In this document: positions 1-13,772 of the stretch, one piece after another
How the letters are laid out: each line of letters opens with the position of its first letter
Numbering within the stretch: the stretch's first letter is position 1
Origin: Agromyces mediolanus
Lineage (GTDB): Bacteria > Actinomycetota > Actinomycetes > Actinomycetales > Microbacteriaceae
DNA length: 64,000 bases
NCBI RefSeq assembly: GCF_014648575.1
Contig: NZ_BMRJ01000003.1
Span: 107,463 to 171,462, forward strand
Direction of reading: 5' to 3'
Notes under the pieces: generated by a model
The model's input: the letters and a program-made list of their open reading frames with translations, nothing else
Told to the model about the DNA's origin: nothing
Database searches by the model: none
Program-made: the position numbers and the translations under genes

Positions 1-1425
1 CGGGATCGCCGTCGTGATCGGGCGGATGCCGGAGAGCTTCGACGGCGAGAGCTGCCGCTCGACGTCTTCGCGGCTCATCAGCCCGGCCTCGACGACGAGG
101 TCGGCCACGGGGCGACCGGTCGCGAGCGCCAGCTTCGCGAGCGTCGCGGCCTCGGTGTAGCCGATGAACGGGATGAGTGCCGTGATGACGCCGACGCTCG
201 TCGAGACCATGTGCTCGAGCCGCTCGGTGTTGGCGGTGATGCCGTCGACGCAGTTCACCCGCAGCGTCCAGCAGGCCTGACGCATCCAGGTGATCGACTG
301 CAGCAGCGAGTGCGCGATGACCGGCTCGAAGGCGTTCAGTTGCAGCTGCCCGCTCTCGGCCGCCATCGTGACCGTGAGATCGGCGCCCGCGACGGCGTAC
401 GCGACCTGGCTGACCGCCTCGGGGATGACGGGGTTGACCTTGCCCGGCATGATCGACGAGCCCGCCTGCTTCGGCGGCAGGTTGATCTCGCCGAGGCCCG
501 CCTGCGGGCCCGAGGAGAGCAGGCGCAGGTCGTTGCAGATCTTCGAGAGCTTGATGGCGCTGCGCTTCAGCGCGCTCGAGAACGTCATGAAGACGCCGGT
601 GTCGCTCGTCGCCTCGATGAGGTCGGGCGCCGATTCGAGCGTGAGCCCGGTGATCTCGCTCAGCGTGCGGACCACGGCGGCGGTGTAGCCGGGCTCCGCG
701 GTGATGCCGGTGCCGATCGCGGTGGCGCCGAGGTTCACCTCGGACAGCAGCTTGATGGTCTCGCGGAGCCGGTCGACGTCCTCGCCGAGCGTGGTCGCGA
801 AGCCGTGGAACTCCTGCCCGAGCGTCATCGGCACGGCGTCCTGCAGCTGCGTGCGGCCGACCTTCAGCACCTCGTGGAACTCGCGCCCCTTCTTGCCGAA
901 GGCGATGCGCAGCAGATCGAGCTCGGTCAGCATCGTGCGCAGCGAGAACGCCATCGCGAGCTTCACCGCGGTCGGGTAGGTGTCGTTCGTCGACTGGCTG
1001 CGGTTGACGTCGTCGATCGGGTGCAGGACGTCGTAGCGCCCCTTCTCGTAGCCGCCGATCTCGAGCGCGAAGTTCGCGATGACCTCGTTCGCGTTCATGT
1101 TCGTCGAGGTGCCCGCGCCGCCCTGGATGACGCCGACGACGAACTGGTCGTGCAGCTCGCCGTCGATGATGCGCTGGCAGGCCTCGTCGATCCAGGCGGC
1201 CTTCTGCTCGGTGAGCACGCCGAGCTCGCGGTTCGCCCGGGCGGCCGCCTGCTTGACGGAGGCGAGGGCGACGACGAGCTCCGGGTAGACCGAGATGGGG
1301 CGCTTCGTGATCGGGAAGTTCTCGAGGGCGCGGAGCGTATGCACGCCCCAGTAGGCGTCGATGGGCACGTGGCCTTCGCCGAGCGAGTCCCGCTCGACTC
1401 GGGTGGGGACGTCGGGTCCGATCAT
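1..1425 (-). CDS. aspA: Aspartate ammonia-lyase, 3' end cut by window edge
   Basis: Converts L-aspartate to fumarate and ammonia in the cytosol. About 475 residues are visible, close to the full family length, so only the last few residues are missing. The fumarase/aspartase superfamily signature GSSIMPGKVNP is present, and the N-terminus carries the aspartase-type AYWGVHTLRALENFPI rather than the fumarase form. The ATG at 1425 follows GGAGG four bases upstream (minus strand). A TAGGCT -10 box about 120 bases upstream suggests its own promoter, separate from the permease gene behind it. It does not appear to be part of the amine cluster, although aspartate/glutamate metabolism is adjacent. 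Confidence 0.93.
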   Translation of the reverse strand, partial: MIGPDVPTRVERDSLGEGHVPIDAYWGVHTLRALENFPITKRPISVYPELVVALASVKQAAARANRELGVLTEQKAAWIDEACQRIIDGELHDQFVVGVIQGGAGTSTNMNANEVIANFALEIGGYEKGRYDVLHPIDDVNRSQSTNDTYPTAVKLAMAFSLRTMLTELDLLRIAFGKKGREFHEVLKVGRTQLQDAVPMTLGQEFHGFATTLGEDVDRLRETIKLLSEVNLGATAIGTGITAEPGYTAAVVRTLSEITGLTLESAPDLIEATSDTGVFMTFSSALKRSAIKLSKICNDLRLLSSGPQAGLGEINLPPKQAGSSIMPGKVNPVIPEAVSQVAYAVAGADLTVTMAAESGQLQLNAFEPVIAHSLLQSITWMRQACWTLRVNCVDGITANTERLEHMVSTSVGVITALIPFIGYTEAATLAKLALATGRPVADLVVEAGLMSREDVERQLSPSKLSGIRPITTAIP

Positions 1426-1544
1426 GTTCGCCTCCAGGCGGCGCTCGTGGGTCGGGTGTGCGGAGATCGACACGCTGGCTCCATCGCCTCGGCCGCCGGG
1501 GATCGCCCGGCGGGTGGTACCGGCGCGGTTCCGCGCCTCCCCCG

Positions 1545-1550
1545 AGCCTA
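1545..1550 (-). promoter_or_regulatory. Putative -10 box of aspA (TAGGCT)
   Basis: TAGGCT on the minus strand in the gap between the permease terminator and aspA. It would give a leader of about 110 bases. No convincing -35 was seen. Confidence 0.35.
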
Positions 1551-1559
1551 GCCCGAAGC

Positions 1560-1598
1560 GCCGAGCGGCGGAGCGCCCCCCGCGCCCCGCCGCTCGGC
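1560..1598 (-). terminator. Terminator after the amine permease gene
   Basis: Inverted repeat with 12-base arms (GCCGAGCGGCGG and its complement) around a 15-base C-rich loop, 38 bases after the permease stop. It separates the permease from aspA on the same strand. Confidence 0.6.
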
Positions 1599-1635
1599 TC
1601 CTCCCGGCACCCCCGCACCGGGATCCGTCGCCCGC

Positions 1636-3222
1636 TCAGCCGAGCGGGGCCGCACCGCCCGGTCCGCCCGGCGCCCGCCCCTCGGCGGGCTCGTCCACGC
1701 CGTCGCTCGCGAGCAGCTCCTCCTCGACCGTGCCGCCGTAGCCCTCGGCCTGCGGGTCGCCGTGCAGGCCGCCGGACACCGCGTACTCCTCCTCCGGGGA
1801 GAGCACCAGGCGGTGCCGGCCCCAGACGCCGAAGCCGATGAGCATCACGAGGTACACGACCGCGATCGCGATGATCGCGGGCACGAAGGTCGGGTTCAGC
1901 AGGAAGCCGACGAAGATGAGCCCGGCGATGACGGCCGCGGCGATGGCGCCCGGCACGCCCCAGGGGCTGCGGTACGGGCGGCTCGCGTTCGGGAACTTGC
2001 GGCGCAGCAGCACGAAGGCGACCATCTGCATGAGATAGGCGAGCACCGCGCCCCACACGGCGATGTTCAGCACGATCGCACCGGCGACACCGCCGGCACC
2101 GCCCGCGAGGTCCACGATGTTGAGCGCCACGAAGCCGATGACCGCCCCGGCGACGAGCGCCACCCACGGGGTCTGCCGCGATCCGGTGAGCGAGAGGAAC
2201 TTCGGGTAGTAGCCCGCACGGGACAGCGAGTACATGTTGCGGCCGTAGGCGAACATGATCCCCTGCAGCGAGGCGAGCAGGCCGACGAGGGCGAAGAGCG
2301 CGAGCACGGCGGCCGCGCCGTCGCCGACGATCGCCCGGAAGCCGTCGAGCAGCGGCTCGCCCGCGGTGCCTGTCGCCTCGGCGCCGATGACGCCCGTGTT
2401 GAGGAACAGCACGAGCAGGCCGGTGATGATGAGGGTCGCGCGGGCGATGAGCCCGGCGCGCGGGATGTCGCGGACCGGGTTGTGCGACTCCTCCGCGGCG
2501 AGCGGGAGCTCCTCGATGCCGAGGAAGAACCACATCGCGAACGGCAGCGCGAAGAGGATCGGCAGCACGCCGTGCGGCAGGAACGCCGTCTGGCCGGCGT
2601 CGGGCGCGATGTCCCAGAGCGCGTCCCAGGAGAACTGGCCGGAGAACAGCGCCATGGCCGAGAACACGAGGATGATCGCGATCGAGATGATCGACACGAC
2701 GATCGCGAACTTGAAGGAGATGCTCGCCCCGGCCGCGTTGAGCGCGATGAACGCGAGGTAGAGGATGGCCCACCAGATCGGCGCCGGCATCGAGAAGCCG
2801 AGCAGCTCGCTCGTGATGCCGTCGGCGTACGCGGCCGAGAAGTAGACGATCACCGCCGTGGTGGCGACGTACTCGATGGTCTCGGCGAGGCCCGTGATGA
2901 AGCCGCCCCAGGGGCCCATCGCCGCCCGCGAGAAGGAGTAGGCGCCGCCCGTGTGCGGCATCGCGGAGCTCATCTCGCCGATGGAGAAGATCAGGCCGTA
3001 GTACATGACGATGAGCACGGCGAAGGCGATCAGCATGCCGCCGAAGCCGGCGAAGTCGATGCCGAAGTTCCACCCCGAGAAGTCGCCGGAGATGACGGCG
3101 GCGACCGCGAGGCCCCAGAGCCCCCAGACGCCCGCCGAACGCTTGAGCCTGCGCTTCTCGAAGTACCCCTCGTCGGCCGTCGAGTACGTGACGCCCGACA
3201 CCTTGAGCGTGTCCTTGGCCAT
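1636..3222 (-). CDS. APC-family amino acid/amine permease, ethanolamine permease type
   Basis: Integral membrane importer of the amino acid-polyamine-organocation superfamily, 528 residues with about 12 hydrophobic segments. The N-terminal region (GVWGLWGLAVAAVISGDFSG, then GEMSSAMPHTGGAYSF) is typical of the Eat ethanolamine permease subgroup. The start is the ATG at 3222 because AGGGAG lies six bases upstream; an in-frame ATG at 3237 has no ribosome site. It is divergent from the glutamine-synthetase-like gene at 3445, with operator-like palindromes between them. The context supports an amine such as ethanolamine as substrate, but specificity cannot be read from sequence. The C-terminus has a long acidic/Gly-Pro-rich cytosolic tail. 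Confidence 0.82.
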   Translation of the reverse strand: MAKDTLKVSGVTYSTADEGYFEKRRLKRSAGVWGLWGLAVAAVISGDFSGWNFGIDFAGFGGMLIAFAVLIVMYYGLIFSIGEMSSAMPHTGGAYSFSRAAMGPWGGFITGLAETIEYVATTAVIVYFSAAYADGITSELLGFSMPAPIWWAILYLAFIALNAAGASISFKFAIVVSIISIAIILVFSAMALFSGQFSWDALWDIAPDAGQTAFLPHGVLPILFALPFAMWFFLGIEELPLAAEESHNPVRDIPRAGLIARATLIITGLLVLFLNTGVIGAEATGTAGEPLLDGFRAIVGDGAAAVLALFALVGLLASLQGIMFAYGRNMYSLSRAGYYPKFLSLTGSRQTPWVALVAGAVIGFVALNIVDLAGGAGGVAGAIVLNIAVWGAVLAYLMQMVAFVLLRRKFPNASRPYRSPWGVPGAIAAAVIAGLIFVGFLLNPTFVPAIIAIAVVYLVMLIGFGVWGRHRLVLSPEEEYAVSGGLHGDPQAEGYGGTVEEELLASDGVDEPAEGRAPGGPGGAAPLG

Positions 3223-3304
3223 GGTGCTCCCTTGCATTCATGGCGCGCGCCGTTCGGGGGCGAGCGCGGGGGTGCGGTGTATTGGCCACGATGATAGGGG
3301 CGTC

Positions 3305-3327
3305 AATGGTCGGCCGTACAGACCTTT
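3305..3327. promoter_or_regulatory. Candidate operator half-conserved palindrome (permease side)
   Basis: AATGGTCG followed after 7 bases by AGACCTTT. The left arm is identical to the left arm of the perfect palindrome at 3401-3423 and the right arm matches it at 5 of 8 positions with the same spacing. It lies about 85 bases upstream of the permease start. The likely binder is the FadR-type regulator at 7848; this is inference. Confidence 0.4.
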
Positions 3328-3400
3328 CGCGAAGAAATCTCTCGGAAACATCCAGATCGAGCGCGAGGCATCCATTCCCAGCGGCGCGCACTCGTGATGT

Positions 3401-3423
3401 AATGGTCGCCACAACCGACCATT
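3401..3423. promoter_or_regulatory. Candidate operator palindrome (ligase side)
   Basis: Perfect 8-base inverted repeat AATGGTCG-N7-CGACCATT, 21 bases upstream of the ATG at 3445 and overlapping a TGTAAT box (3398-3403) that could be the -10 of the ligase operon. A site here would block transcription or initiation when bound. Confidence 0.5.
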
Positions 3424-3444
3424 CCACTCGAGGAGGAGCATCGA

Positions 3445-4812
3445 ATGTCGGCACCCACGGGACCCCTCACGCTCGAGCAGCTGCGCCAGGCGATCGCCGA
3501 CGACCACGTCGACACGGTCATCGTCTCGTTCACCGACATGCAGGGGCGGCTCGTCGGCAAGCGGGTCTCGGCCCGGCTCTTCCTGGAGGACGCCGCCGCG
3601 CACGGCGTCGAGGCGTGCAACTACCTGCTCGCGGTCGACGTGGAGATGAACACCGTCGACGGCTACGCGATGTCGAGCTGGGAGCGCGGCTACGGCGACA
3701 TGGCGCTCATCCCGGACTTCGCGACGCTGCGGATGGCGCCCTGGCTGTCGCAGACCGCGATCGTCACCGCCGACCTCCGCTGGCTCGACGACTCCCCCGT
3801 CGAGCCGTCGCCCCGACGCATCCTGCAGCGCCAGCTCGAGCGCCTCGCCGAGCGCGGCCTCACCGCCTTCGTCGGCACCGAGCTCGAGTTCATCGTCTTC
3901 GACGACTCGTACCGCGAGGCCTGGCGCAAGGGCTATCGCGAGCTCACGGCGGCGAGCGATTACAACATCGACTACGCCCTGCTCGCCTCCACCCGCATGG
4001 AACCGCTCCTGCACGACATCCGCCGCTCGATGGAGGGCGCCGGCATGTACTGCGAGGGTGTGAAGGGCGAGTGCAACTTCGGCCAGCAGGAGATCGCGTT
4101 CCGCTACGCCGACGCGCTCACCACCTGCGACAACCACTCGCTCTACAAGAACGGCGCGAAGGAGATCGCCGACCGGCACGGCAAGGCGCTCACCTTCATG
4201 GCGAAGTACGACGAGCGCGAGGGCAACAGCTGCCACATCCACATCTCGCTCCGCGGCGCCGACGGCGAGGCGGTCTTCGCCGACGGGTCCGCCCCGCACG
4301 GCATGTCCAAGCTGTTCCGGCACTTCCTGGCCGGGCAGCTCGCCGCCATGCGCGAGCTCACCCTCTTCTCGGCGCCGAACATCAACTCCTACAAGCGCTA
4401 CGTCGCCGGCAGCTTCGCGCCGACCGCGATCGCCTGGGGACTCGACAACCGCACCTGCGCGCTCCGCGTCGTCGGCCACGGCCACGGCATGCGCGTCGAG
4501 AACCGGGTGCCGGGCGGCGATGTCAACCAGTACCTCGCGGTCGCCGCGCTCATCGCCGCCGGCCTGCACGGCATCGAGCAGGAGCTCGAGCCCGACGAGC
4601 TCTTCGCCGGCAACGCCTACGAGTCAGATGTCGCGCGGGTCCCGGCGACCCTCCGCGAGGCCGCCGAGCTCTTCGCGGACTCGACGATCGCGCGCGAGGC
4701 CTTCGGCGACGAGGTCGTCGAGCACTATCTCAACAATGCGCGGGTCGAGATCGCCGCCTACGACGCGGCCGTGACGGACTGGGAGCGGGTTCGTGGCTTC
4801 GAACGACTCTGA
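3445..4812 (+). CDS. Glutamine-synthetase-like gamma-glutamyl-amine ligase (GlnA4/PuuA type)
   Basis: Predicted ATP-dependent ligation of glutamate to an amine, forming a gamma-glutamyl amide as in PuuA (putrescine) or Streptomyces GlnA4 (ethanolamine). 455 residues: N-terminal beta-grasp about 1-105, then the GS catalytic domain with ELEFIVFDD (metal-binding strand), GVKGECNFGQQE, NSCHIHISL and the late RVENRVPGGDVN segment. It lacks the adenylylation-site loop expected of a central GlnA. GAGGAGGAG lies a few bases before the ATG, a strong ribosome site. It overlaps the next gene by 20 bases. Neighbours (permease, hydrolase, aldehyde dehydrogenase, SDR) fit amine catabolism rather than nitrogen assimilation. 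Ethanolamine is favoured over putrescine because no PuuB-type oxidase is present. Confidence 0.85.
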   Translation: MSAPTGPLTLEQLRQAIADDHVDTVIVSFTDMQGRLVGKRVSARLFLEDAAAHGVEACNYLLAVDVEMNTVDGYAMSSWERGYGDMALIPDFATLRMAPWLSQTAIVTADLRWLDDSPVEPSPRRILQRQLERLAERGLTAFVGTELEFIVFDDSYREAWRKGYRELTAASDYNIDYALLASTRMEPLLHDIRRSMEGAGMYCEGVKGECNFGQQEIAFRYADALTTCDNHSLYKNGAKEIADRHGKALTFMAKYDEREGNSCHIHISLRGADGEAVFADGSAPHGMSKLFRHFLAGQLAAMRELTLFSAPNINSYKRYVAGSFAPTAIAWGLDNRTCALRVVGHGHGMRVENRVPGGDVNQYLAVAALIAAGLHGIEQELEPDELFAGNAYESDVARVPATLREAAELFADSTIAREAFGDEVVEHYLNNARVEIAAYDAAVTDWERVRGFERL

Positions 4813-5644
4813 GCCGCAGCGCCCTCCCGCGGCGAGCGCGGACGCGCCCGTCATCGGCATCACCACCTACCTGGAGCAGGCCCGGACCGGGGTCTGGGAC
4901 GTGCCGGCGTCCTTCCTGCCGAAGGTCTACCTCGACGCCGTCACGGACGCGGGCGGCATCGCCGTGCTGCTGCCGCCCCAACCCGTGGACGCGCCGCTCG
5001 CGCGCCGGGTGCTCGCCTCGCTCGACGGGCTGATCGTCGCCGGCGGCGCCGACGTCGACCCGGCCCGCTACGGGCAGCCCGCCCACGAGCGCACGGGTGC
5101 GCCCAGGGGCGACCGCGACGATTGGGAGGACGCCCTGCTCACCGCCGCGATCGACGACGGCGTGCCCTTCCTCGGCATCTGCCGCGGCGCCCAGATGCTG
5201 AACGTCGCCCTCGGCGGCACCCTGCACCAGCACCTGCCCGACGTCGTCGGCTCCGAGGCCTACCAGCCGGCGCCCGCCGTGTTCGGCGAGACGACGGTGC
5301 GCGTCGCCCCGGGCTCGCGCCTCGCGGGGCTCGTCGGCGAGACGGACGCCCTGCCTGTGCACGTCTACCACCACCAGGCGCTCGACCGGGTCGCCGACGG
5401 CCTCGTCGTCACCGCGCGCAGCGATGACGGGGTCATCGAGGCCGTCGAGCTGCCCACCGCCCCGTTCGGCGTCGCCGTGCAGTGGCACCCGGAGGAGAAC
5501 GCCCGCGACCGCCGGCTGTTCGCCGGGCTCGTCGAGGCCGCCCGGGCGCACCGGGTCGCGCGCGAGCGGGCCGCCGCAGCGCCGCCCGCGGCCTCGGTTC
5601 CCGCATCCGCCGCATCCGTCGCCCCCGAGAGGACCGCGCCATGA
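4793..5644 (+). CDS. Gamma-glutamyl hydrolase, class I amidotransferase fold (PuuD-like)
   Basis: Predicted to release glutamate from a gamma-glutamyl amide after oxidation of the amine part. 283 residues of the peptidase C26 family. The triad is visible: Cys130 in FLGICRGAQ, His232 and Glu234 in VQWHPEE. Residues 81-90 (IVAGGADVDP) match the family loop. It begins inside the end of the ligase gene (20-base overlap) and ends in an ATGA overlap with the aldehyde dehydrogenase, so the three are translationally coupled. The last about 35 residues are an Ala/Pro-rich tail. In the E. coli Puu pathway the homologue cleaves gamma-glutamyl-GABA; here gamma-glutamyl-glycine is an alternative substrate. 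Confidence 0.85.
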   Translation: MASNDSEPQRPPAASADAPVIGITTYLEQARTGVWDVPASFLPKVYLDAVTDAGGIAVLLPPQPVDAPLARRVLASLDGLIVAGGADVDPARYGQPAHERTGAPRGDRDDWEDALLTAAIDDGVPFLGICRGAQMLNVALGGTLHQHLPDVVGSEAYQPAPAVFGETTVRVAPGSRLAGLVGETDALPVHVYHHQALDRVADGLVVTARSDDGVIEAVELPTAPFGVAVQWHPEENARDRRLFAGLVEAARAHRVARERAAAAPPAASVPASAASVAPERTAP

Positions 5645-6996
5645 CGCACACCATCGTGAACCCCGCCGACGAGGAGCTCGTCACCACCGTCGAAGGCGCC
5701 GACGTCGAGCAGACGGATGCCGCGATCGCCGCGGCCGCCGTGGCGCAGCGCGAGTGGGCCGCCGCGGCGCCCGCCGACCGGGCGCGGGCGCTCCGCCGCT
5801 TCGCCGAGGCCGTCGACGGCGCTGTCGAGGAACTCGCGGCGATCGAGGTGCGCAACTCGGGGCATCCGATCGGCCAGGCCCGCTGGGAGGCGGGCCACGT
5901 CCGCGACGTGCTCGAGTACTACTCGGCCGCCCCCGAGCGGCTGTTCGGGCGGCAGATCCCGGTCGCGGGTGGCCTGGACGTCACCTTCCAGGAGCCGCTC
6001 GGCGTCGTCGGCGTCATCACGCCGTGGAACTTCCCCATGACGATCGCCTCCTGGGGCTTCGCACCGGCGCTCGCCGCCGGCAACGCGGTGGTGCTGAAGC
6101 CCGCCGAGTGGACGCCGCTCACGAGCCTCCGGCTCGCCGAGCTCGCGCTCGAGTCCGGGCTGCCGGAGGGCCTGTTCCAGGTGATCCCGGGCCGGGGCTC
6201 GGTGGTGGGCGAGCGCTTCGTCACGAACGAGACGGTGCGGAAGGTCGTCTTCACGGGCTCCACCGAGGTCGGTCAGCGCATCATGGCCGGCTGCGCGGCG
6301 CAGGTGAAGCGGGTCACGCTCGAGCTCGGCGGCAAGAGCGCGAACCTCGTCTTCGCCGACGCCGACCTCGAGCGCGCCGCGGCCACCGCGCCGTACGGCG
6401 TGTTCGAGAACGCCGGCCAGGACTGCTGCGCCCGCAGCCGCATCCTCGTCGAACGGAGCGTGTACGAGCGCTTCATGGAGCTGCTCGAACCCGCCGTCCA
6501 GGGAGTGAAGGTCGGCGACCCGCGCGACGAGGCCACCGAGATGGGGCCCCTCGTCGCGGCGGCGCACCGCGAGCGGGTCCGGGAGTTTGTGCCCGACGAC
6601 CGCGACGTCGCGTTCCGCGGGAGCGCGCCCGAGGGCCCGGGGTTCTGGTTCCCGCCGACGGTGCTCACCCCCGCTCGCGACGCCCGCACCGCGACCGAGG
6701 AGATCTTCGGCCCGGTCGTGTCGGTCTTCCCCTTCGACGACGAGGCGGATGCCGTCGCGTTCGCCAACGCCGGCCGCTTCGGCCTGTCCGGCTCGATCTG
6801 GACGCGGGACATCGGCCGCGGCATCCGCGTCGCGCGCGGCATCGAGTCCGGCAACCTCTCCGTGAACTCGCACTCCTCCGTGCGCTACTCGACCCCGTTC
6901 GGCGGCTTCAAGCAGTCCGGGCTCGGCCGCGAGCTCGGCCCCGACGCGCCCGCCGCCTTCACCGAGACGAAGAACGTCTTCATCGCCGTCGACTGA
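5641..6996 (+). CDS. NAD(P)-dependent aldehyde dehydrogenase of the amine cluster
   Basis: Oxidises an aldehyde, probably a gamma-glutamyl-aminoaldehyde, to the acid. 451 residues, somewhat short for the family (about 480-500) because the N-terminus is compact. Key residues: Asn130 in PWNFP, Glu228 in LELGGK and catalytic Cys262 in GQDCCARSR; FGGFKQSGLGRE near the end is standard. ATG at 5641 overlaps the stop of the hydrolase gene (ATGA). The gene order hydrolase-ALDH mirrors PuuD-PuuC of polyamine pathways. Confidence 0.9.
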   Translation: MTHTIVNPADEELVTTVEGADVEQTDAAIAAAAVAQREWAAAAPADRARALRRFAEAVDGAVEELAAIEVRNSGHPIGQARWEAGHVRDVLEYYSAAPERLFGRQIPVAGGLDVTFQEPLGVVGVITPWNFPMTIASWGFAPALAAGNAVVLKPAEWTPLTSLRLAELALESGLPEGLFQVIPGRGSVVGERFVTNETVRKVVFTGSTEVGQRIMAGCAAQVKRVTLELGGKSANLVFADADLERAAATAPYGVFENAGQDCCARSRILVERSVYERFMELLEPAVQGVKVGDPRDEATEMGPLVAAAHRERVREFVPDDRDVAFRGSAPEGPGFWFPPTVLTPARDARTATEEIFGPVVSVFPFDDEADAVAFANAGRFGLSGSIWTRDIGRGIRVARGIESGNLSVNSHSSVRYSTPFGGFKQSGLGRELGPDAPAAFTETKNVFIAVD

Positions 6997-7048
6997 GCCG
7001 GCCCATCACGCATCGCCCCGATTCGACCACCGCAACCCAGGGAGCACC

Positions 7049-7837
7049 ATGACCGTCACCCCGCTCGACCTCACCCAGCGCCTCGCCGGCCGCGTCGCCG
7101 TCATCACCGGCGGCGCCTCCGGCATCGGCCTCGCCACCGCGCGCCGCCTCGCGGCGGAGGGCGCGAAGGTCGTCATCGGCGACCTCGACCCGAGGAGCGG
7201 CGCGGCCGCGGCGAGCGAGGTCGACGGCCTCTTCGTGCAGCTCGACGTCACCGAGGAGGCGCAGGTCGACCACCTCTTCGACGAGGCCGCCCGCGTCTAC
7301 GGCTCCGTGGACATCGCCTTCAACAACGCGGGCATCTCGCCGCCCGACGACGACTCCATCGAGACGACCGAGCTGCCGGCGTGGCAGAAGGTGCAGGACG
7401 TCAACCTGAAGAGCGTGTACCTGTGCTCGCGGGCGGCGCTGCGGCACATGGTCGCGCAGGGCCGCGGCTCGATCATCAACACCGCCTCCTTCGTCGCGGT
7501 GCTGGGCTCGGCCACCTCGCAGATCTCCTACACCGCGTCGAAGGGCGGCGTGCTCGCGATGAGCCGTGAGCTCGGCGTGCAGTTCGCGCGCCAGGGCATC
7601 CGGGTCAACGCGCTCTGCCCGGGCCCGGTCAACACACCGTTGCTGCAGGAGCTCTTCGCGAAGGACCCCGAGCGGGCGCAGCGCCGGCTCGTGCACGTGC
7701 CGGTCGGGCGCTTCGCGAACCCCGAGGAGCTCGCCGCGGCCGTCGCGTTCCTCGCGAGCGACGACGCCTCGTTCATCACGGGGTCGACCTTCCTCGTCGA
7801 CGGCGGCATCAGCGCCGCCTACGTCACGCCCCTCTAG
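7049..7837 (+). CDS. Short-chain dehydrogenase/reductase (SDR)
   Basis: Classical 262-residue SDR: TGGASGIG at 20-27 (NAD(P) binding), NNAG at 92-95, Ser147, and the catalytic Tyr161-x3-Lys165. C-terminus is the usual ITGSTFLVDGG type. AGGGAGCACC precedes the ATG, 52 bases after the aldehyde dehydrogenase stop, so it probably shares the transcript. In an ethanolamine route it would supply the missing alcohol-to-aldehyde step on gamma-glutamyl-ethanolamide. Sequence alone cannot exclude another alcohol or ketone substrate. Confidence 0.9.
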   Translation: MTVTPLDLTQRLAGRVAVITGGASGIGLATARRLAAEGAKVVIGDLDPRSGAAAASEVDGLFVQLDVTEEAQVDHLFDEAARVYGSVDIAFNNAGISPPDDDSIETTELPAWQKVQDVNLKSVYLCSRAALRHMVAQGRGSIINTASFVAVLGSATSQISYTASKGGVLAMSRELGVQFARQGIRVNALCPGPVNTPLLQELFAKDPERAQRRLVHVPVGRFANPEELAAAVAFLASDDASFITGSTFLVDGGISAAYVTPL

Positions 7838-7840
7838 GCT
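7835..7840 (+). promoter_or_regulatory. -10 box TAGGCT for leaderless regulator gene
   Basis: TAGGCT ends seven bases before the ATG at 7848 and shares its first three bases with the TAG stop codon of the SDR gene. This spacing would start the RNA at or next to the ATG. Confidence 0.5.
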
Positions 7841-7847
7841 CGGAAGC

Positions 7848-8582
7848 ATGGACGAGCGGGGAGCGGAGCAGCCGGGCGTGCTGGACGCCGGGCTGCTGCT
7901 GCGACCCGCCCGGCCGGCGAACGCCTTCGAGGAGACCGTGCAGCGGCTGCTGCAGACGATCCGGCTCGGGCTCATCGCCCCGGGCGAGCGGCTGCCGGCC
8001 GAGCGCGAACTCGCGGCGACCCTCGAGGTCAGCCGGGACACCCTCCGCGAGGCGATCGGCTCGCTCGCGGACGCCGGCTGGGTCGTCGCGCGGCGCGGCC
8101 GCTACGGCGGCACCTTCGTCTCCGATCCGCTGCCCGAACCCGGGCCGGGCGTGCCCCGACCGATCGAGCGGCGGAGCCTCGACGACACCCTGGCGCTGCG
8201 CGCCGTGGTCGAGGTCGGCGTCGCCCGGCGGGCGGCCGAGAGCGAGCTGAGCGCCGCCGACCGGGAACGCCTCTGGCAGGCGCACCTCGCCTGCGGGCAG
8301 GCCGATGAGGCGGGCTACCGGGTCGCGGACTCCCGCCTCCACCTCGTCATCGCCGAGGTGGTGGGGGCGGAGTCGGTGACCCCGCTCGTCGCCGAGGTGC
8401 GGATGCGCATCAACGAGCTGCTCGACGGCATCCCGCTGCTCGCGCCGAACATCGCGCACTCCGACGAGCAGCACGGCGCGATCGTGGCGGCGATCCTGAA
8501 GGGCAGCCCGGAGGAGGCGGCGCAGGCGATGGCCGAGCACCTCATCGGCACCGAGGCGCTGCTGCGCGGCTTCTACGGCTGA
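7848..8582 (+). CDS. FadR-subfamily GntR regulator (FCD domain)
   Basis: DNA-binding repressor or activator, 244 residues. N-terminal winged helix about 24-95 with PGERLPAERELAATLEVSRD; C-terminal FCD ligand domain about 110-240 with the metal-site residues Asp161, His165 (DSRLH), His209 (DEQHG) and His231 (AEHLI). Such domains usually bind small acids. It ends the amine operon and is the natural candidate to bind the palindromes at 3305 and 3401. The ATG at 7848 is chosen because the TAGGCT box sits seven bases upstream and no good ribosome site exists, suggesting leaderless autonomous transcription in addition to read-through. Confidence 0.85.
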   Translation: MDERGAEQPGVLDAGLLLRPARPANAFEETVQRLLQTIRLGLIAPGERLPAERELAATLEVSRDTLREAIGSLADAGWVVARRGRYGGTFVSDPLPEPGPGVPRPIERRSLDDTLALRAVVEVGVARRAAESELSAADRERLWQAHLACGQADEAGYRVADSRLHLVIAEVVGAESVTPLVAEVRMRINELLDGIPLLAPNIAHSDEQHGAIVAAILKGSPEEAAQAMAEHLIGTEALLRGFYG

Positions 8583-8597
8583 CCGCAGGCGACGCGG

Positions 8598-8627
8598 AAC
8601 GGGGCGCGCCCGACGGCGCGCCCCGTT
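8598..8627. terminator. Bidirectional terminator between the amine operon and the DUF4190 gene
   Basis: Perfect 13-base stem (AACGGGGCGCGCC and complement) with a CGAC loop, 15 bases past the regulator stop and 14 bases past the end of the convergent gene. Confidence 0.75.
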
Positions 8628-8640
8628 CGCGATGCGAGCG

Positions 8641-8988
8641 TCAGAAAGCGGTCGCGAAGAAGGGCAGGAACGGCAGCGTGAGCGCGCCGAAGGCGAGCAT
8701 GCCGAAGCCGACGAGCACGGTGCCGACGAGCATCACCGTGTTGAGCACGACGCCCCAGATGGCCATCGTGCGCGACGCCGGCTCGCGCTGGAGGCCGACG
8801 ATGCCGAGTACGAGACCGCCGATCGGCACCAGGAAGGTGAAGCCGGCGACGATCGACACGAGCCCGAGCACGAGGCTCGCGATCGAGAAGCCGTTCGTCT
8901 CGGCCGCCCGGGGCTGCGCCGGGGCGGGCTGCTGGGCCCCGCCCGCCGGGTGGACGGGAGTGACGGTGGGATCGATGGTGGTGGTCAT
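8641..8988 (-). CDS. DUF4190-type small membrane protein
   Basis: 115 residues. An N-terminal Pro/Ala/Gln-rich segment (1-30) is followed by the DUF4190 core: two hydrophobic segments about 34-68 and 76-112 separated by a short polar turn (LQREPASRT). Function is unknown; the family is common in actinobacteria, often beside other membrane proteins. The ATG at 8988 has GGAG close by, but TAGCGT seven bases upstream also fits leaderless transcription. Monocistronic, with a terminator 14 bases after the stop. Confidence 0.75.
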   Translation of the reverse strand: MTTTIDPTVTPVHPAGGAQQPAPAQPRAAETNGFSIASLVLGLVSIVAGFTFLVPIGGLVLGIVGLQREPASRTMAIWGVVLNTVMLVGTVLVGFGMLAFGALTLPFLPFFATAF

Positions 8989-8995
8989 GGCTCCA

Positions 8996-9001
8996 ACGCT
9001 A
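8996..9001 (-). promoter_or_regulatory. -10 box TAGCGT of the DUF4190 gene
   Basis: Seven bases upstream of the ATG at 8988 on the minus strand, the spacing seen at many starts in this window. Confidence 0.45.
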
Positions 9002-9025
9002 CGGATCGCGCCGCGGCGTCGGTAT

Positions 9026-9037
9026 GGGGATATCCCC
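9026..9037. promoter_or_regulatory. 12-base palindrome GGGGATATCCCC
   Basis: Perfect palindrome 25 bases upstream of the DUF4190 -10 box, so at about the -35 position. Its factor is unknown. Confidence 0.3.
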
Positions 9038-9077
9038 CGATTCCGGACCCCGAGCACCCCGAACGGGCCGAACGGGT

Positions 9078-10544
9078 TCACCCCTCGGCGAGCACCTCGG
9101 CGACGAGCTGCTCGACGACGGGCAGGCAGCGCGCGCGGTCGGCGGCGACGAAGCCGATCCTGGTGCGCCGGTCGAGCACATCGTCGGCGGTGAGCGCGCC
9201 CTCGACGCGCACGGCGTACTCGACGTCGGCGCGGCGCACGGCGACGCCCTCGGCGATCGGCACGGCCGGCTCGCTCAGACGGGTGCGGGCGAGGGCGTCG
9301 TCGATCCCGACGAGCCGCAGTCCGGCGGTGCGGCTCGGCGGCGCCGCGATGGTCCGGGTCGCGAGCGCGAGGTCGACGGCGTCCTCCGCCATCCGCCGGT
9401 ACGTGGTGAGCTTGCCGCCGAGCACGGAGACGAAGCCCGCGTCGGACACCGCGACGAGGTGGCGGCGCGAGAGGTCGGCCGTGCGGTCGGCCCCGCTGTC
9501 GATGAGCGGCCGCAGCCCGGCGAACGCACCGAGCAGCTGCTCGCGTCGCACCGGGGTCTCGACGACCCGGTTCAGGCTCGCGAGGAGGAAGGCGATCTCG
9601 GCCTCGCTCGGCTCCGGCACGTCCGGCACCGGCCCCGGGGCCTCCTCGTCGGTGAGGCCGACGACGACGCGGCCGGAGCGCTGCGGCAGGGCGAACACGT
9701 AGCGGCTGATCGAGCCCTCGTGCGGGATCGTCAGCGCCGCCGACGGCTGGCCGAGGAGCGCGCCGTCGAGCACGAGGTGCGTGCCGCGGCTCGGCCGAAC
9801 GGCGATGCCGCCGTCGAGGCCGCCGGCCCAGACGCCCGTCGCGTTCACGACGGCCCGCGCGCGGAGCTCGAAGCGCTCCCCGCTCAGCACGTCCGCCACC
9901 TCGGCCCCGTCGGCGCGGAGCCGGAGCGCGCGGACGCGGGTGAGGATCCACGCCCCGTGCGCGGCCGCGGTTCGGGCGACGGTGACGACGAGCTTCGCGT
10001 CGTCGACGAGCTGCCCGTCGTACGAGAGCATGCCGCCGCGGAGCCCCCGCCCCTCGAGCGCCGGCACGAGCCGCCGCGCCGTGCCGGCCGTGACCGGCCG
10101 GGGCGGCGGCAGCACCGCCCGCGGGGTGCGCGCCTGCACGCGGAGCAGATCGCCGAGGCCCATGCCGACGGCCCCGGCGGCGCGCTGACGGAGCGAGACG
10201 CCCGGCAGGAACGGGAGCAGTTGCGGCAGCGGGCGGATGAGGTGCGGCGCGATCGAGGTCATCAGCAGGTGGCGCTCGGCGGCGCTCTCCCTGGCGGTCG
10301 CGACGTCGCCGGTGGCGAGGTAGCGGAGGCCGCCGTGCACGAGCTTGGAGCTCCACCGGCTCGTGCCGAAGGCGAGGTCCTGGGCCTCGACGAGCACGAC
10401 GCGGAGCCCCCGCGAGGCCGCGTCGAGCGCGACTCCGGCCCCGGTGATGCCGCCGCCGACGACGAGCAGGTCCGCTGTCTCGGCGGCGGCGCGCTCCATC
10501 TCCCGCCCGCGGCGGGTGGCGTCGAGCGCGTCGGTGCCCGTCAT
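9078..10544 (-). CDS. glpD: FAD-dependent glycerol-3-phosphate dehydrogenase
   Basis: Oxidises sn-glycerol 3-phosphate to dihydroxyacetone phosphate at the membrane, passing electrons to quinone. 488 residues. FAD-binding DLLVVGGGITGAG lies at about 25-37, followed by the family segment SSKLVHGGLRYL; the C-terminal part has the GKLTTYRRMAE motif. The ATG at 10544 overlaps the stop of the TetR gene (ATGA), giving a TetR-glpD operon. Linkage to the divergent flavoprotein and lipid kinase suggests it serves phospholipid precursor balance, as with mycobacterial glpD1. Confidence 0.93.
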   Translation of the reverse strand: MTGTDALDATRRGREMERAAAETADLLVVGGGITGAGVALDAASRGLRVVLVEAQDLAFGTSRWSSKLVHGGLRYLATGDVATARESAAERHLLMTSIAPHLIRPLPQLLPFLPGVSLRQRAAGAVGMGLGDLLRVQARTPRAVLPPPRPVTAGTARRLVPALEGRGLRGGMLSYDGQLVDDAKLVVTVARTAAAHGAWILTRVRALRLRADGAEVADVLSGERFELRARAVVNATGVWAGGLDGGIAVRPSRGTHLVLDGALLGQPSAALTIPHEGSISRYVFALPQRSGRVVVGLTDEEAPGPVPDVPEPSEAEIAFLLASLNRVVETPVRREQLLGAFAGLRPLIDSGADRTADLSRRHLVAVSDAGFVSVLGGKLTTYRRMAEDAVDLALATRTIAAPPSRTAGLRLVGIDDALARTRLSEPAVPIAEGVAVRRADVEYAVRVEGALTADDVLDRRTRIGFVAADRARCLPVVEQLVAEVLAEG

Positions 10545-11149
10545 GGCCGCAGGTGCCCGTCGAGCGCCGCTCGGAGCTCGCGCTCCCAGGCCTCCTCGTC
10601 GATGAGCTCGGTCACGGTGCCGTGCGAGAGCACCGCCGACTGGGCGATGAGCAGCAGCATGACCGCGATCTCCTGCGGCGCCCCCTGGCGCACCGAGCCG
10701 TCCTCCTGCGCGGCCGCGATCGCCGTGGCGAGCCAGGCGAGGATCATCCGCTGGCTCGAGCCGACCCGCTGCAGGGTGTAGCGCGTGAAGGCCTCCGGCT
10801 CGTCGTCGAGCAGCCGCCCGTAGACCGCGTCGCTGCGGAAGCGGGCGGAGAAGCGCAGCACGTCGTCGACGAGGCCCGCGCGCGTGCTCGCGGGGGTCTC
10901 GAAGGAGGCGAGGATGCGGATGACGCGGCGCAGCAGCGCTGAACGGACCACGTCGTCGGCGTCGCTCCAGCTGCGGTAGACGGTCGGGCGGCTGAGGCCC
11001 GAACGGCGCGAGAGCTCGGCGATGGTCACCCCGCCGACGCCGCGGCGGCGGATGAGCTCGTCCGCGGCGTCGAGCACGCGCGACTGCGTGGCGTCCCACT
11101 CGGGGAGCTCGGCGCCGAAGGGCGGCAGCACTGCTTGACGTTCTTCCAT
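10541..11149 (-). CDS. TetR-family regulator
   Basis: 202 residues. Helix-turn-helix about 35-65 (VTIAELSRRSGLSRPTVYRSW); the rest is an all-helical ligand/dimer domain. Only 20 bases separate its ATG from the start of the divergent flavoprotein gene, so it likely controls both directions. A TACAGT box (11160-11165, minus strand) ten bases from the ATG implies a near-leaderless mRNA. It matches the position of mycobacterial Rv2250c next to glpD1. Its ligand is unknown; a lipid or glycerol metabolite is a reasonable guess. Confidence 0.85.
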   Translation of the reverse strand: MEERQAVLPPFGAELPEWDATQSRVLDAADELIRRRGVGGVTIAELSRRSGLSRPTVYRSWSDADDVVRSALLRRVIRILASFETPASTRAGLVDDVLRFSARFRSDAVYGRLLDDEPEAFTRYTLQRVGSSQRMILAWLATAIAAAQEDGSVRQGAPQEIAVMLLLIAQSAVLSHGTVTELIDEEAWERELRAALDGHLRP

Positions 11150-11169
11150 GATCTGTCACACTGTAATGC
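11150..11169. promoter_or_regulatory. Compact divergent promoter of the lipid cluster
   Basis: A 20-base gap holding TACAGT facing TetR and overlapping TGTAAT facing the flavoprotein gene. The TGTAAT is only two bases from the ATG at 11170, so either transcription starts elsewhere or the real start is the next in-frame ATG at 11209. Confidence 0.35.
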
Positions 11170-12822
11170 ATGAGCGATGCACGCGACAGGGTCGACGCGG
11201 ACCCGCCGATGCGGTGGAACGGCTGGGGCGACCCGGCCAAGGCGAAAGACCTGCCCCTCGCCGTGCGCACGCTCCTGCCGCTCCTGCTCGGCCGGGTGCG
11301 GCGACCGGCGCCGGCCGCGGAGCTCGACGCCGTGCGCGTTGCGCCGCCCGCGCTCACCGCCGAGGAGCTCGACGCGCTCCGCGCCGTCGTCGGCGAGGCG
11401 CACGTCGAGCTCTCCGCCGAGGCGCGGCTCCGGCACGCCGGCGGCCGATCCACGCCCGACCTGCTCCGTCGCAGAGCGCCGGAGCAGCTCGCGCCCGACG
11501 CCGTCGTGCGTCCCGCCGATCACGGCGAGGTGCTCGCCTGCCTCGAGCTTGCGCACGCCCGCGGCATCGCGGTCATCCCCTTCGGCGGCGGCACGAGCGT
11601 CGTCGGCGCCCTCGATCCCGAACGCGGCGCCCACCACGCCGTCGTGAGCCTCGACCTCCGCCGGCTCACTGGCCTCCTCGCGCTCGACGAGCTCAGCGGC
11701 GAGGCCGTCCTCGGCGCCGGCACGACCGGCCCCGAGGCGGAGGCGCTGCTCGCCGCGCACGGCTTCGAGCTCGGCCACTACCCGCAGAGCTTCCGCTACG
11801 CGACCATCGGCGGCTTCGCCGCGGCCCGCTCCTCCGGGCAGAACTCGGCCGGCTACGGCCGCTTCGACACCATGGTCACGGGACTCCGGGTCGCCACCCC
11901 CACCGGCGAGCTCGAGCTCGGCCGCTCCCCCGGCTCCGCCGCCGGCCCCGATCTCGTCCGGGTGTTCCTCGGCTCGGAGGGCATCTTCGGCGTCATCACC
12001 GAGGTCCGGCTGCGCGTGCACCCGGTGCCTCGCGAGCGCGTCTTCGAGGCCTGGACCTTCCCCGACTTCGCGGCGGGCGCCGAGGGGCTCCGCCGGGTCG
12101 CCCAGCACGGCGGCGGGCCCACCGTCATCCGCCTCTCCGACGAGGCGGAGACCGCCGTGAGCCTCGCACAGCTCGGCAAGCTCGGCAAGGCGCTCGCGAA
12201 AGGCGCGAGCGCCGTCACGGTCTACGAGGGCGACGGCATCGAGGAGCGCCGGGCGCGCACCTCGGAGCTGCTGCGCGCCGCGGCCGGCACCTCCTCCGGC
12301 GCGGGCGCCGCCGCCGACTGGCTCGCCGGCCGCTTCGACGGCCCCTACCTGCGCGACGCGCTCCTCGACGCCGGCGTGTTCTGCGAGACGCTCGAGACGG
12401 CCACCACCTGGTCGAAGCTGCCGGCGCTGCGCGAGGCCGTCGAGCGCACCCTCCGCGACGGCCTCGGCGCAGCCGGCGCGAAGTCGTACGTCATGTGCCA
12501 CGTCTCGCACATCTATCCCACCGGCGCCTCGCTCTACTTCACCGTCCTCGCGGGGATCCGCGAGGAGCCGCTCGGAGTCTGGGAGCGGGTGAAGGCCGAG
12601 GTGAACGACGCCATCCTCGCCGCCGGCGGCACCATCAGCCACCACCACGCCGTCGGCCGGGACCACGCCCCGTGGCTGCCGAGCGAGATCGGCGAGACCG
12701 GCATCCGCATCCTCCGGGCCATCAAGCGCGAACTCGACCCGCGCGCGATCCTGAACCCCGGCGCGGTCATCGCGGCCGAGCCGGCCGCGCACCCCGCGTC
12801 CGCACCAAGCCGGGAGGGATGA
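11170..12822 (+). CDS. FAD-linked oxidase, alkyl-DHAP synthase (AGPS)-like
   Basis: 550 residues. Segment PMRWNGWGDP at the N-terminus and a PCMH-type FAD domain (about 115-290: VIPFGGGTSVVGAL, then FRYATIGGFAAARSSGQNS) are characteristic of the alkylglycerone-phosphate synthase group. The His-rich segment ISHHHAVGRDH near 495-505 matches the AGPS active-site region. The eukaryotic enzyme swaps acyl for alkyl on acyl-DHAP; bacterial homologues such as Rv2251 and Rv3107c are less defined. ATGA overlap with the lipid kinase gene means coupled translation. An alternative start at 11209 would shorten it by 13 residues. Confidence 0.85.
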   Translation: MSDARDRVDADPPMRWNGWGDPAKAKDLPLAVRTLLPLLLGRVRRPAPAAELDAVRVAPPALTAEELDALRAVVGEAHVELSAEARLRHAGGRSTPDLLRRRAPEQLAPDAVVRPADHGEVLACLELAHARGIAVIPFGGGTSVVGALDPERGAHHAVVSLDLRRLTGLLALDELSGEAVLGAGTTGPEAEALLAAHGFELGHYPQSFRYATIGGFAAARSSGQNSAGYGRFDTMVTGLRVATPTGELELGRSPGSAAGPDLVRVFLGSEGIFGVITEVRLRVHPVPRERVFEAWTFPDFAAGAEGLRRVAQHGGGPTVIRLSDEAETAVSLAQLGKLGKALAKGASAVTVYEGDGIEERRARTSELLRAAAGTSSGAGAAADWLAGRFDGPYLRDALLDAGVFCETLETATTWSKLPALREAVERTLRDGLGAAGAKSYVMCHVSHIYPTGASLYFTVLAGIREEPLGVWERVKAEVNDAILAAGGTISHHHAVGRDHAPWLPSEIGETGIRILRAIKRELDPRAILNPGAVIAAEPAAHPASAPSREG

Positions 12823-13772
12823 CGGTGGGCGGGCACATCGCGGTGCTGGCCAATCCGTTCGCCGGAAAGGGGCGCGGACGCGCCGCCGCCGCCTCGGCCA
12901 TCGCCGGACTCCGCGCGCACGGCGTCGAGGTGCGCAGCTACGAGGGGGGCTCGGCCGCCGAGACCGCCGCGCTCGCGGCGCGGGCACTCGATGGCGCCCC
13001 GACCGCGCTCGTGGTCGTCGGCGGGGACGGCACCCTCTCCGGGATCCTCGAGCCCCTCCTCCGCGCGTCCGTGCCGATCGTGCTCGTGCCCGCGGGCACC
13101 GGCAACGACCTCGCCCGCGCGCTCGGACTCCCCCGTGACGACGCGGCGGCGGCCGCGGCGCTCGCCCTCACCGGCACCGCCCGGGTCATCGACGTCGGCG
13201 AGGTGCGCAGCGCCGGCCGGACGACCCCCTTCCTCACCGTCGCCGCCCTCGGCTTCGACGCGAAGGTCAGCGACCGCACGAACCGGCTGCGCTGGCCGCA
13301 CGGCGCGCTCCGCTACTACCTGGCCCTCGCGATCGAGCTCGTGCGGCTGCGCCCCATGGACTTCACCATCCGGATCGAGGACGAGGACGAGCTCCGCGCG
13401 CCCGGCACGCTCGTCGCGGTCGGCAACACCGAGAGCTACGGCGGCGGGATGCCCGTCTGCGTGGGCGCGCTCCCCGACGACGGGCTGCTCGACGTCGTGC
13501 ACGTCGCCCCGCTCACGCGGCTGCGGCTCGTGCGGCTCTTTCCGCTGCTGCTGCGCGGCCGGCACGACCACCGCCCCGAGGTGACCCACCGGCGCGCCCG
13601 CGAGGTGCGGGTCTCGGCCCCTGGACTCACCGTCTACGCCGACGGCGAGCGCGTCGGCAGCGGTGCCTGCGAGATCGTCTCGCGGGCGGGCGCGCTGCGC
13701 ATCATGGTGCCGCACGCCCAGGGCCGGCCGTCGGCCGCCGACGCGGCGCACGCGGCGGGCGGCCCGGCATGA
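12819..13772 (+). CDS. Diacylglycerol kinase-family lipid kinase (YegS/Rv2252/BmrU type)
   Basis: Predicted ATP-dependent phosphorylation of diacylglycerol or a related lipid, giving phosphatidate. 317 residues. NPFAGKGRG at 12-20 and GGDGT at 68-72 form the nucleotide site; PAGTGNDLARAL follows. A further conserved block is ESYGGGMPV in the C-terminal domain. GGGAGGG precedes the ATG at 12819, which overlaps the preceding stop (ATGA), and it ends in an ATGA overlap with the GMC gene. Rv2252 of M. tuberculosis, in the same order after an AGPS-like gene, is a characterised diacylglycerol kinase. Confidence 0.92.
   Translation: MTVGGHIAVLANPFAGKGRGRAAAASAIAGLRAHGVEVRSYEGGSAAETAALAARALDGAPTALVVVGGDGTLSGILEPLLRASVPIVLVPAGTGNDLARALGLPRDDAAAAAALALTGTARVIDVGEVRSAGRTTPFLTVAALGFDAKVSDRTNRLRWPHGALRYYLALAIELVRLRPMDFTIRIEDEDELRAPGTLVAVGNTESYGGGMPVCVGALPDDGLLDVVHVAPLTRLRLVRLFPLLLRGRHDHRPEVTHRRAREVRVSAPGLTVYADGERVGSGACEIVSRAGALRIMVPHAQGRPSAADAAHAAGGPA

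What the first reader, a model, noticed from the sequence alone, without database searches (positions are those of the whole stretch)
1636..8582. A compact gamma-glutamylation pathway that could convert ethanolamine to glycine
Seen: an Eat-type permease, a GlnA4/PuuA-like ligase, a C26 hydrolase with Cys130-His232-Glu234, an aldehyde dehydrogenase, an SDR with Tyr161/Lys165 and a FadR regulator, nearly all coupled. Known: Streptomyces GlnA4 makes gamma-glutamyl-ethanolamide, and E. coli PuuA-B-C-D degrades putrescine via gamma-glutamyl intermediates. Inferred: SDR oxidises gamma-glutamyl-ethanolamide to the aldehyde, ALDH gives gamma-glutamyl-glycine, the hydrolase releases glutamate plus glycine. 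The amine oxidase PuuB is absent and an SDR takes its place, which suits an alcohol rather than a second amine. This avoids the B12/EutBC route.
Basis: partly seen in the sequence, partly recalled or inferred. Interest (0 to 1): 0.75.

Follow-up and report, generated by a model that had tools for sequence, protein, structure and literature searches.

The report
Known gamma-glutamyl ethanolamine pathway cluster
A soil bacterium carries a six-gene set that probably breaks ethanolamine down to glycine by first attaching it to glutamate; the route was already proposed in 2019 for the matching genes of Streptomyces, so this is a conserved, ordinary member of a known pathway.

Summary
The window (an Agromyces; ligase 97% identical to A. 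soli's) holds a permease, GlnA4-type ligase, C26 hydrolase, aldehyde dehydrogenase, SDR and FadR-type regulator at the stated places, with the stated catalytic residues.

Krysenko et al. 2019 (PMC6529630, passages) proposed the same four steps for the S. coelicolor glnA4 cluster (SCO1610-SCO1615) and showed the ligase step.

Tree, gene content and primer-encoded peptides link the two clusters. C26 accompanies the ligase in 80 of 80 named loci, the SDR in 75 of 80. EutB is absent from the genome.

Two small points go beyond the passages I saw. Four of six proteobacterial plasmid loci examined have an iron alcohol dehydrogenase and an N-formylglutamate amidohydrolase instead, so two of four steps use different protein families. 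A palindrome in the divergent promoter, with a related site in 8 of 8 Streptomyces-like promoters examined, is a candidate operator. Substrate, SDR, ALDH and C26 steps are untested here. Interest is low.

The parts
1636..3237 (-). APC-type permease, best NCBIfam match ethanolamine permease TIGR00908 (below the curated cut-off)
   Evidence: within 6 kb of the ligase in 64 of 80 named loci
3305..3327 (+). Second operator-like site, AATGGTCG-N7-AGACCTTT (2 mismatches to the palindrome)
3401..3423 (+). Perfect palindrome AATGGTCG-N7-CGACCATT, candidate operator of the FadR-type regulator
   Evidence: 2 matches in the window, 0.13 expected; only exact copy in the genome
3445..4812 (+). GlnA4-type gamma-glutamylamide ligase (glutamine synthetase family), predicted gamma-glutamylethanolamide synthetase
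4793..5644 (+). Class C26 hydrolase (Cys130, His232, Glu234), predicted gamma-glutamylglycine hydrolase; GTG start, true start could lie further in
5641..6996 (+). Aldehyde dehydrogenase, predicted to oxidise the gamma-glutamyl aldehyde to gamma-glutamylglycine
7049..7837 (+). SDR of NCBIfam NF004713/PRK06057 (501 bits, cut-off 404), predicted gamma-glutamylethanolamide dehydrogenase; Tyr161, Lys165
7848..8582 (+). GntR/FadR-family regulator with FCD domain, counterpart of Streptomyces EpuRI

Best explanation
This is the Agromyces member of the actinobacterial GlnA4 ethanolamine cluster. Ethanolamine enters by the Eat-like permease. The ligase spends ATP to join it to glutamate as gamma-glutamylethanolamide. 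The SDR oxidises the alcohol to the gamma-glutamyl aldehyde, the ALDH oxidises that to gamma-glutamylglycine, and the C26 hydrolase releases glycine and regenerates glutamate. The FadR-type protein probably represses both divergent promoters through the sites at 3401-3423 and 3305-3327 and lets go when substrate or an intermediate is present. Shown here: gene identities, catalytic residues, conserved association, kinship with the Streptomyces-like clusters, a palindrome in the shared promoter. Shown elsewhere for S. coelicolor (passages of PMC6529630 and PMC8998196): GlnA4 activity on ethanolamine, the glnA4 mutant phenotype, repression of glnA4 by EpuRI and binding of EpuRI to the glnA4 promoter. 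Inferred: substrate in Agromyces, the SDR, ALDH and C26 steps, operator function.
For: The ligase falls in a 37-row clade (support 100/100) with the Streptomyces-like rows, apart from the proteobacterial iron-ADH ligases (63 rows chosen by me). In 8 of 9 long loci fetched from the Streptomyces-like genus g8, SDR-ALDH-ligase lies divergent from a FadR regulator and a C26 gene, with the permease in 3 of those 8; the gene list is that of the published Fig. 2 legend. The ninth (L126) is a lone ligase copy. Peptides encoded by published SCO1612, SCO1613 and SCO1614 primers recur in the ALDH, ligase and regulator there, some exactly, some partly. C26, ALDH and SDR accompany the ligase in 80, 79 and 75 of 80 named loci; the six loci without an SDR hit end inside or within 250 bases after ALDH, or before it. 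EutB: no match in the genome, control rings in E. coli only. PMC6529630 passages give the same pathway; PMC8998196 passages report EpuRI binding at the glnA4 and epuRI promoters. Glycine cleavage P-protein is present in the genome.
Against: The permease is under the ethanolamine permease cut-off and 40-44% identical to the Streptomyces-like ones; the two of those that I scanned pass it. Ligases 47-51% identical sit beside aminotransferases in three other plasmid loci, so the family alone does not fix the substrate. No substrate was tested. S. coelicolor's own sequence was not found in the 392 genomes searched. A residue-number fingerprint from the paper matched only 2 to 8 of 12 positions. C26 was found near the ligase in only 21 of 40 chosen long loci of the wider phylum. 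In gel shifts S. coelicolor EpuRI bound eight promoters, so its regulon there is wider than this cluster.
Confidence: 0.82

Rival explanations
1. The cluster degrades a different amino alcohol, for example 1-amino-2-propanol or alaninol, through the same chemistry, with the divergent permease tuned to that substrate.
For: The permease scores below the TIGR00908 cut-off whereas the two Streptomyces-like ones scanned pass it; 15 of 16 mycobacterial named loci keep the enzymes without this permease.
Against: Ligase, SDR, ALDH and regulator all have counterparts in the Streptomyces-like set, and the S. coelicolor ligase acts on ethanolamine. A secondary alcohol would give a ketone that an ALDH could not use (chemistry, recalled).
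Confidence: 0.11
2. A Puu-type polyamine pathway, with the ligase acting on putrescine and the SDR on something unrelated.
For: Same superfamilies as PuuA, PuuC and PuuD; the best ALDH models are aminobutyraldehyde and betaine aldehyde dehydrogenases, both below their cut-offs.
Against: The Puu equivalog cut-offs are missed by wide margins: 206.7 of 650, 332 of 850, 112.7 of 266. There is no amine oxidase among the six genes. In S. coelicolor the glnA4 mutant still grows on polyamines (PMC6529630 passages).
Confidence: 0.04
3. The SDR is not part of the pathway; an alcohol dehydrogenase elsewhere does step two and the SDR serves another metabolism.
For: SDR family names are generic, and 26 SDR-like places match in this genome.
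Against: An SDR lies within 6 kb and on the ligase's strand in 75 of 80 named loci, and this SDR is far from the genome's next best (501 against 207 bits for NF004713).
Confidence: 0.03

Closest known systems
Streptomyces coelicolor glnA4 ethanolamine cluster, SCO1610-SCO1615 (Krysenko et al. 2019, PMC6529630)
   Same: Same enzyme set and same proposed steps, FadR-like regulator, ethanolamine permease gene in some Streptomyces species.
   Different: In Streptomyces-like loci C26 and regulator lie on the other strand from ligase-ALDH-SDR. In Agromyces C26 sits between ligase and ALDH, the regulator ends the operon, and the permease is divergent and only 40-44% identical.
Proteobacterial ethanolamine gamma-glutamylation operon (Phaeobacter sp. 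MED193, PMC10132767; Chromohalobacter salexigens)
   Same: Same four-step chemistry; homologous ligase and ALDH family.
   Different: Iron-containing alcohol dehydrogenase instead of SDR, N-formylglutamate amidohydrolase instead of C26; TRAP transporter and RpiR regulator in the Phaeobacter-like layouts (without TRAP).
E. coli PuuA-B-C-D putrescine pathway
   Same: Logic of gamma-glutamyl protection; ligase, ALDH and C26 superfamilies.
   Different: PuuB oxidase missing, an SDR present; the PuuA, PuuC and PuuD cut-offs are not met.
Eut (EutBC) ethanolamine ammonia-lyase route
   Same: Same likely substrate.
   Different: Different chemistry; EutB absent from this genome.

Membership tests
Actinobacterial GlnA4 gamma-glutamylethanolamide cluster | Ligase in one clade with Streptomyces-like GlnA4 | tested here: met
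   37-row clade at 100/100; 63-66% identity to the g8 ligases.
Actinobacterial GlnA4 gamma-glutamylethanolamide cluster | SDR, ALDH and C26/glutamine-amidotransferase-like gene in the cluster | tested here: met
Actinobacterial GlnA4 gamma-glutamylethanolamide cluster | EpuRI-like regulator | tested here: met
   FadR hits of 45-49% identity at the SCO1614 position in 8 of 9 long g8 loci; primer peptides partly matched
Actinobacterial GlnA4 gamma-glutamylethanolamide cluster | Ligase acts on ethanolamine and not on ammonium or polyamines | not testable with these tools
   reported for S. coelicolor (PMC6529630 passages)
TIGR00908 ethanolamine permease | Score over the curated cut-off of 381.75 | tested here: not met
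   324.8 bits, best family by far; two Streptomyces-like permeases score 474.9 and 487.9
Puu putrescine pathway | PuuA, PuuC, PuuD equivalog scores; PuuB oxidase present | tested here: not met
   206.7/650, 332/850, 112.7/266; no oxidase among the six genes
Proteobacterial iron-ADH ethanolamine operon | Iron-containing alcohol dehydrogenase and N-formylglutamate amidohydrolase | tested here: not met
   the genes are SDR and C26 instead; compare
EutBC route | EutB (PF06751) in the genome | tested here: not met
   0 matches; of 14 control genomes it rings in E. coli only

The most novel reading that the evidence does not exclude
Bacteria assembled the gamma-glutamyl ethanolamine route twice around a related ligase and ALDH. 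Actinobacteria filled the alcohol-oxidation and hydrolysis steps with an SDR and a C26 enzyme, Proteobacteria with an iron alcohol dehydrogenase and an N-formylglutamate amidohydrolase; and an EpuRI operator of the form AATGGT-N10/11-ACCwTw is kept from Streptomyces to Agromyces.
Probability: 0.6. Interest if true: 0.35.

Novelty: already known. Interest (0 to 1): 0.2.

Why it matters
The pathway is a way to use ethanolamine, the head group of a common membrane lipid, without the B12-dependent lyase, and its genes are widespread in Actinobacteria. The finding itself repeats a published proposal. What it adds is a gene-family contrast with the proteobacterial version and a candidate operator, both easy to test.

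Tried and rejected
Searched for S. coelicolor itself with 21 bases at the start of epuRI taken from published primers: 0 of 392 genomes of genus g8 (drawn from a larger group). A residue-number fingerprint from the paper's GlnA4 model matched 2 to 8 of 12 positions in the eight Streptomyces-like ligases and 7 of 12 in the window's, shifted by 10; inconclusive. The first ligase tree used two own-genome rows picked as longest frames; both had extreme branches and one is probably a wrong frame. It was redone without them and without two long plasmid rows, L168 and L172. In one search L172 (aminotransferase context, branch length 1) fell inside the GlnA4 clade, which speaks against reading the substrate from the clade alone. 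Downstream genes (GlpD-like, TetR, FAD-linked oxidase, DAG kinase, GMC oxidoreductase) were considered as part of the system: GlpD, TetR and FAD-linked oxidase homologues were found in 1 of 80 named loci (L009; 58 of the 80 are over 17 kb), so rejected. A second locus with a glycine-cleavage-P-like frame was fetched and not pursued. The operator pattern was loosened after seeing the Streptomyces-like sequences, so the 8 of 8 there is not an independent test; with the loosened pattern 30 of 80 named loci have a site within 400 bases upstream of the ligase, against 1 of 1600 block shuffles, and 50 of 80 do not, 15 of the 16 mycobacterial ones included. No structure prediction was run.
Full report
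Observation. The six genes exist at the stated places as open frames. Five run on the plus strand in the order ligase, C26 hydrolase, ALDH, SDR, FadR regulator; the permease is divergent. Ligase and C26 overlap by 20 bases if C26 starts at its GTG, C26 and ALDH by four; the other gaps are 52 and 10 bases. C26 Cys130, His232, Glu234 and SDR Tyr161, Lys165 are as described. Across the 80 named loci the C26 motif G-I/V-C-R-G was found in 77 of 80, its His-Pro-Glu motif in 79 of 80, the SDR Tyr-Lys motif in 72 of 74 with an SDR hit, the ALDH Gly-Gln-x-Cys motif in 79 of 79, and in the ligase the metal-site ELE-type motif in 80 of 80 but the narrower HIH(I/V)S in 55 of 80. The genome is an Agromyces: the nearest named ligase is that of A. 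soli at 97%.

Conservation. In the 80 named loci kept (ligase 72-97% identical), and within 6 kb of the ligase, C26 is present in 80, ALDH in 79, SDR in 75, FadR in 68 and the permease in 64. The six loci without an SDR hit (L026, L039, L043, L054, L060, L074) end inside or within 250 bases after ALDH, or before it. Of the 16 without the permease, 15 are mycobacterial and one (L080) starts 1.4 kb before the ligase. FadR is missing from some loci with room for it (L041, L063, L071, L082). In 40 long loci that I chose from a 396-genome sample of the phylum, an SDR hit is near in 34, ALDH in 29, C26 in 21, permease in 13 and FadR in 12; at 46-55% identity some of these SDR hits may be other SDRs.

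Identity with the published cluster. Krysenko et al. 2019 (PMC6529630; passages) describe SCO1610-SCO1615; the Fig. 2 legend lists a membrane protein, a short-chain dehydrogenase, an aldehyde dehydrogenase, glnA4, a regulator, a putative ethanolamine transporter and a glutamine amidotransferase. They propose ethanolamine to gamma-glutamylethanolamide (GlnA4), to gamma-glutamylacetaldehyde (SCO1611), to gamma-glutamylglycine (SCO1612), to glycine plus glutamate (SCO1615, which their discussion puts in the formylglutamate amidohydrolase family). GlnA4 activity on ethanolamine, the mutant phenotype and repression by EpuRI are experimental there; the later steps are stated as predictions. In 8 of 9 long loci fetched from genus g8, which I take to be Streptomyces, the same set occurs as SDR-ALDH-ligase divergent from regulator and C26; the ninth is a lone ligase copy. 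Peptides encoded by the paper's primers recur there: in the ligase AWDANY is exact in 4 of 8 and KEIAAQ in 6 of 8, 80 residues apart in all 8; in the ALDH NIVFAD is exact in 7 of 8 but TLLEPL in 1 of 8; in the regulator NDLLDC is exact in 5 of 8, DTMLHL in 2 of 8 and the N-terminal MTDRLAP in 0 of 8 (best 6 of 7 letters). The window ligase and these ligases fall in one 37-row clade with support 100/100. So the pathway reading is orthology to a published proposal.

Contrast with Proteobacteria. I looked at nine plasmid regions out of 684 records with a match. Of the six proteobacterial ones, four (two Ruegeria, Aminobacter, Paracoccus) have ALDH, an iron-containing alcohol dehydrogenase and an N-formylglutamate amidohydrolase beside the ligase, two of them with a TRAP transporter and an RpiR regulator; this last is the gene order given for the Phaeobacter ethanolamine operon in PMC10132767 (passages). 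The other two differ: Rhizobium CB3171 has an aminotransferase with the amidohydrolase, and Paraburkholderia neither dehydrogenase. A review (PMC9397018, passages) tabulates PF00465 and PF05013 proteins of C. salexigens beside SCO1611 and SCO1615 as orthologues. The SDR and C26 found here are other Pfam families, so these look like two non-orthologous solutions of the same steps. The split is not strictly by phylum: a Deinococcota plasmid has a gene annotated glucose 1-dehydrogenase (an SDR name, by recall) and an aminotransferase. In Aminobacter the operon adjoins bhcR-bhcABC genes of glyoxylate metabolism, which fits glycine as product; this is a single case. Ligases 47-51% identical beside aminotransferases warn that the family handles more than one amine.

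Rest of the genome. EutB has no match. The genome has three glutamine-synthetase-like genes, one SDR above the NF004713 cut-off and three C26-like places, of which this is by far the best. Glycine cleavage P-protein is present.

Candidate operator. The divergent promoter holds AATGGTCG-N7-CGACCATT exactly at 3401-3423 and with two mismatches at 3305-3327; 2 matches in the window against 0.13 expected. In the genome it is the only exact copy; with up to three mismatches there are 15 places against 1 for the reversed control pattern, and two of the three places with at most two mismatches lie here. AATGGTC occurs in 46 of 64 divergent promoters, window included, against 0.7 in single-base shuffles. 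In 8 of 8 Streptomyces-like intergenic regions between ligase and regulator a related AATGGT-N10-ACCTTA is present. EpuRI binds the glnA4 and epuRI promoters in gel shifts, and six others (PMC8998196, passages). The passages I saw there and in PMC6529630 give no EpuRI site; supplements were not read. The pattern was loosened after seeing the sequences, 50 of 80 named loci lack it in that form, and nothing here shows binding.

Verdict. Real, well conserved, most likely ethanolamine catabolism by gamma-glutamylation, already in print (paper searches kept returning the same few papers). Interest is low; the open parts are the untested SDR and C26 steps, the substrate of the permease and the operator.

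Noticed in passing
window 1-1473 (-): A fumarase/aspartase-family lyase (PF00206, PF10415), probably aspartate ammonia-lyase, lies downstream of the permease on the same strand; a homologue is in the locus in 17 of 80 named loci.
   Followed up: partly
L055-L081 (mycobacterial loci among them): 15 of 16 mycobacterial named loci show no hit to the Eat-like permease while keeping the ligase and C26 and, where the contig reaches, ALDH and SDR; uptake there may differ.
   Followed up: no
L165 (Arthrobacter sp. U41 plasmid) 560-10281: The ligase-C26-ALDH-SDR set sits on a plasmid typed as conjugative, near a choline kinase family gene, an amidase and an inositol monophosphatase family gene.
   Followed up: no
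L172 (Paenarthrobacter sp. YJN-5 plasmid) 1915-13344: A ligase about 51% identical sits with a class III aminotransferase, an ALDH and a PxpA gene in an inverted duplicate, suggesting gamma-glutamylation of another amine.
   Followed up: no
L169 (Aminobacter aminovorans pAA03) 5172-13347: The iron-ADH ethanolamine-type operon directly adjoins bhcR-bhcABC, the beta-hydroxyaspartate cycle genes.
   Followed up: no
window 9078-15418: Next to the cluster lie a GlpD-like oxidoreductase and a TetR regulator divergent from an FAD-linked oxidase (alkyl-DHAP-synthase-like by recall), a DAG kinase and a GMC oxidoreductase; GlpD, TetR and FAD-oxidase homologues were found in 1 of 80 named loci, A. soli.
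   Followed up: partly
L187 6833-11495: A second frame matching glycine cleavage P-protein (207 bits) is followed by a frame with NAD kinase domains, near the genome's second-best NF004713-like SDR.
   Followed up: no
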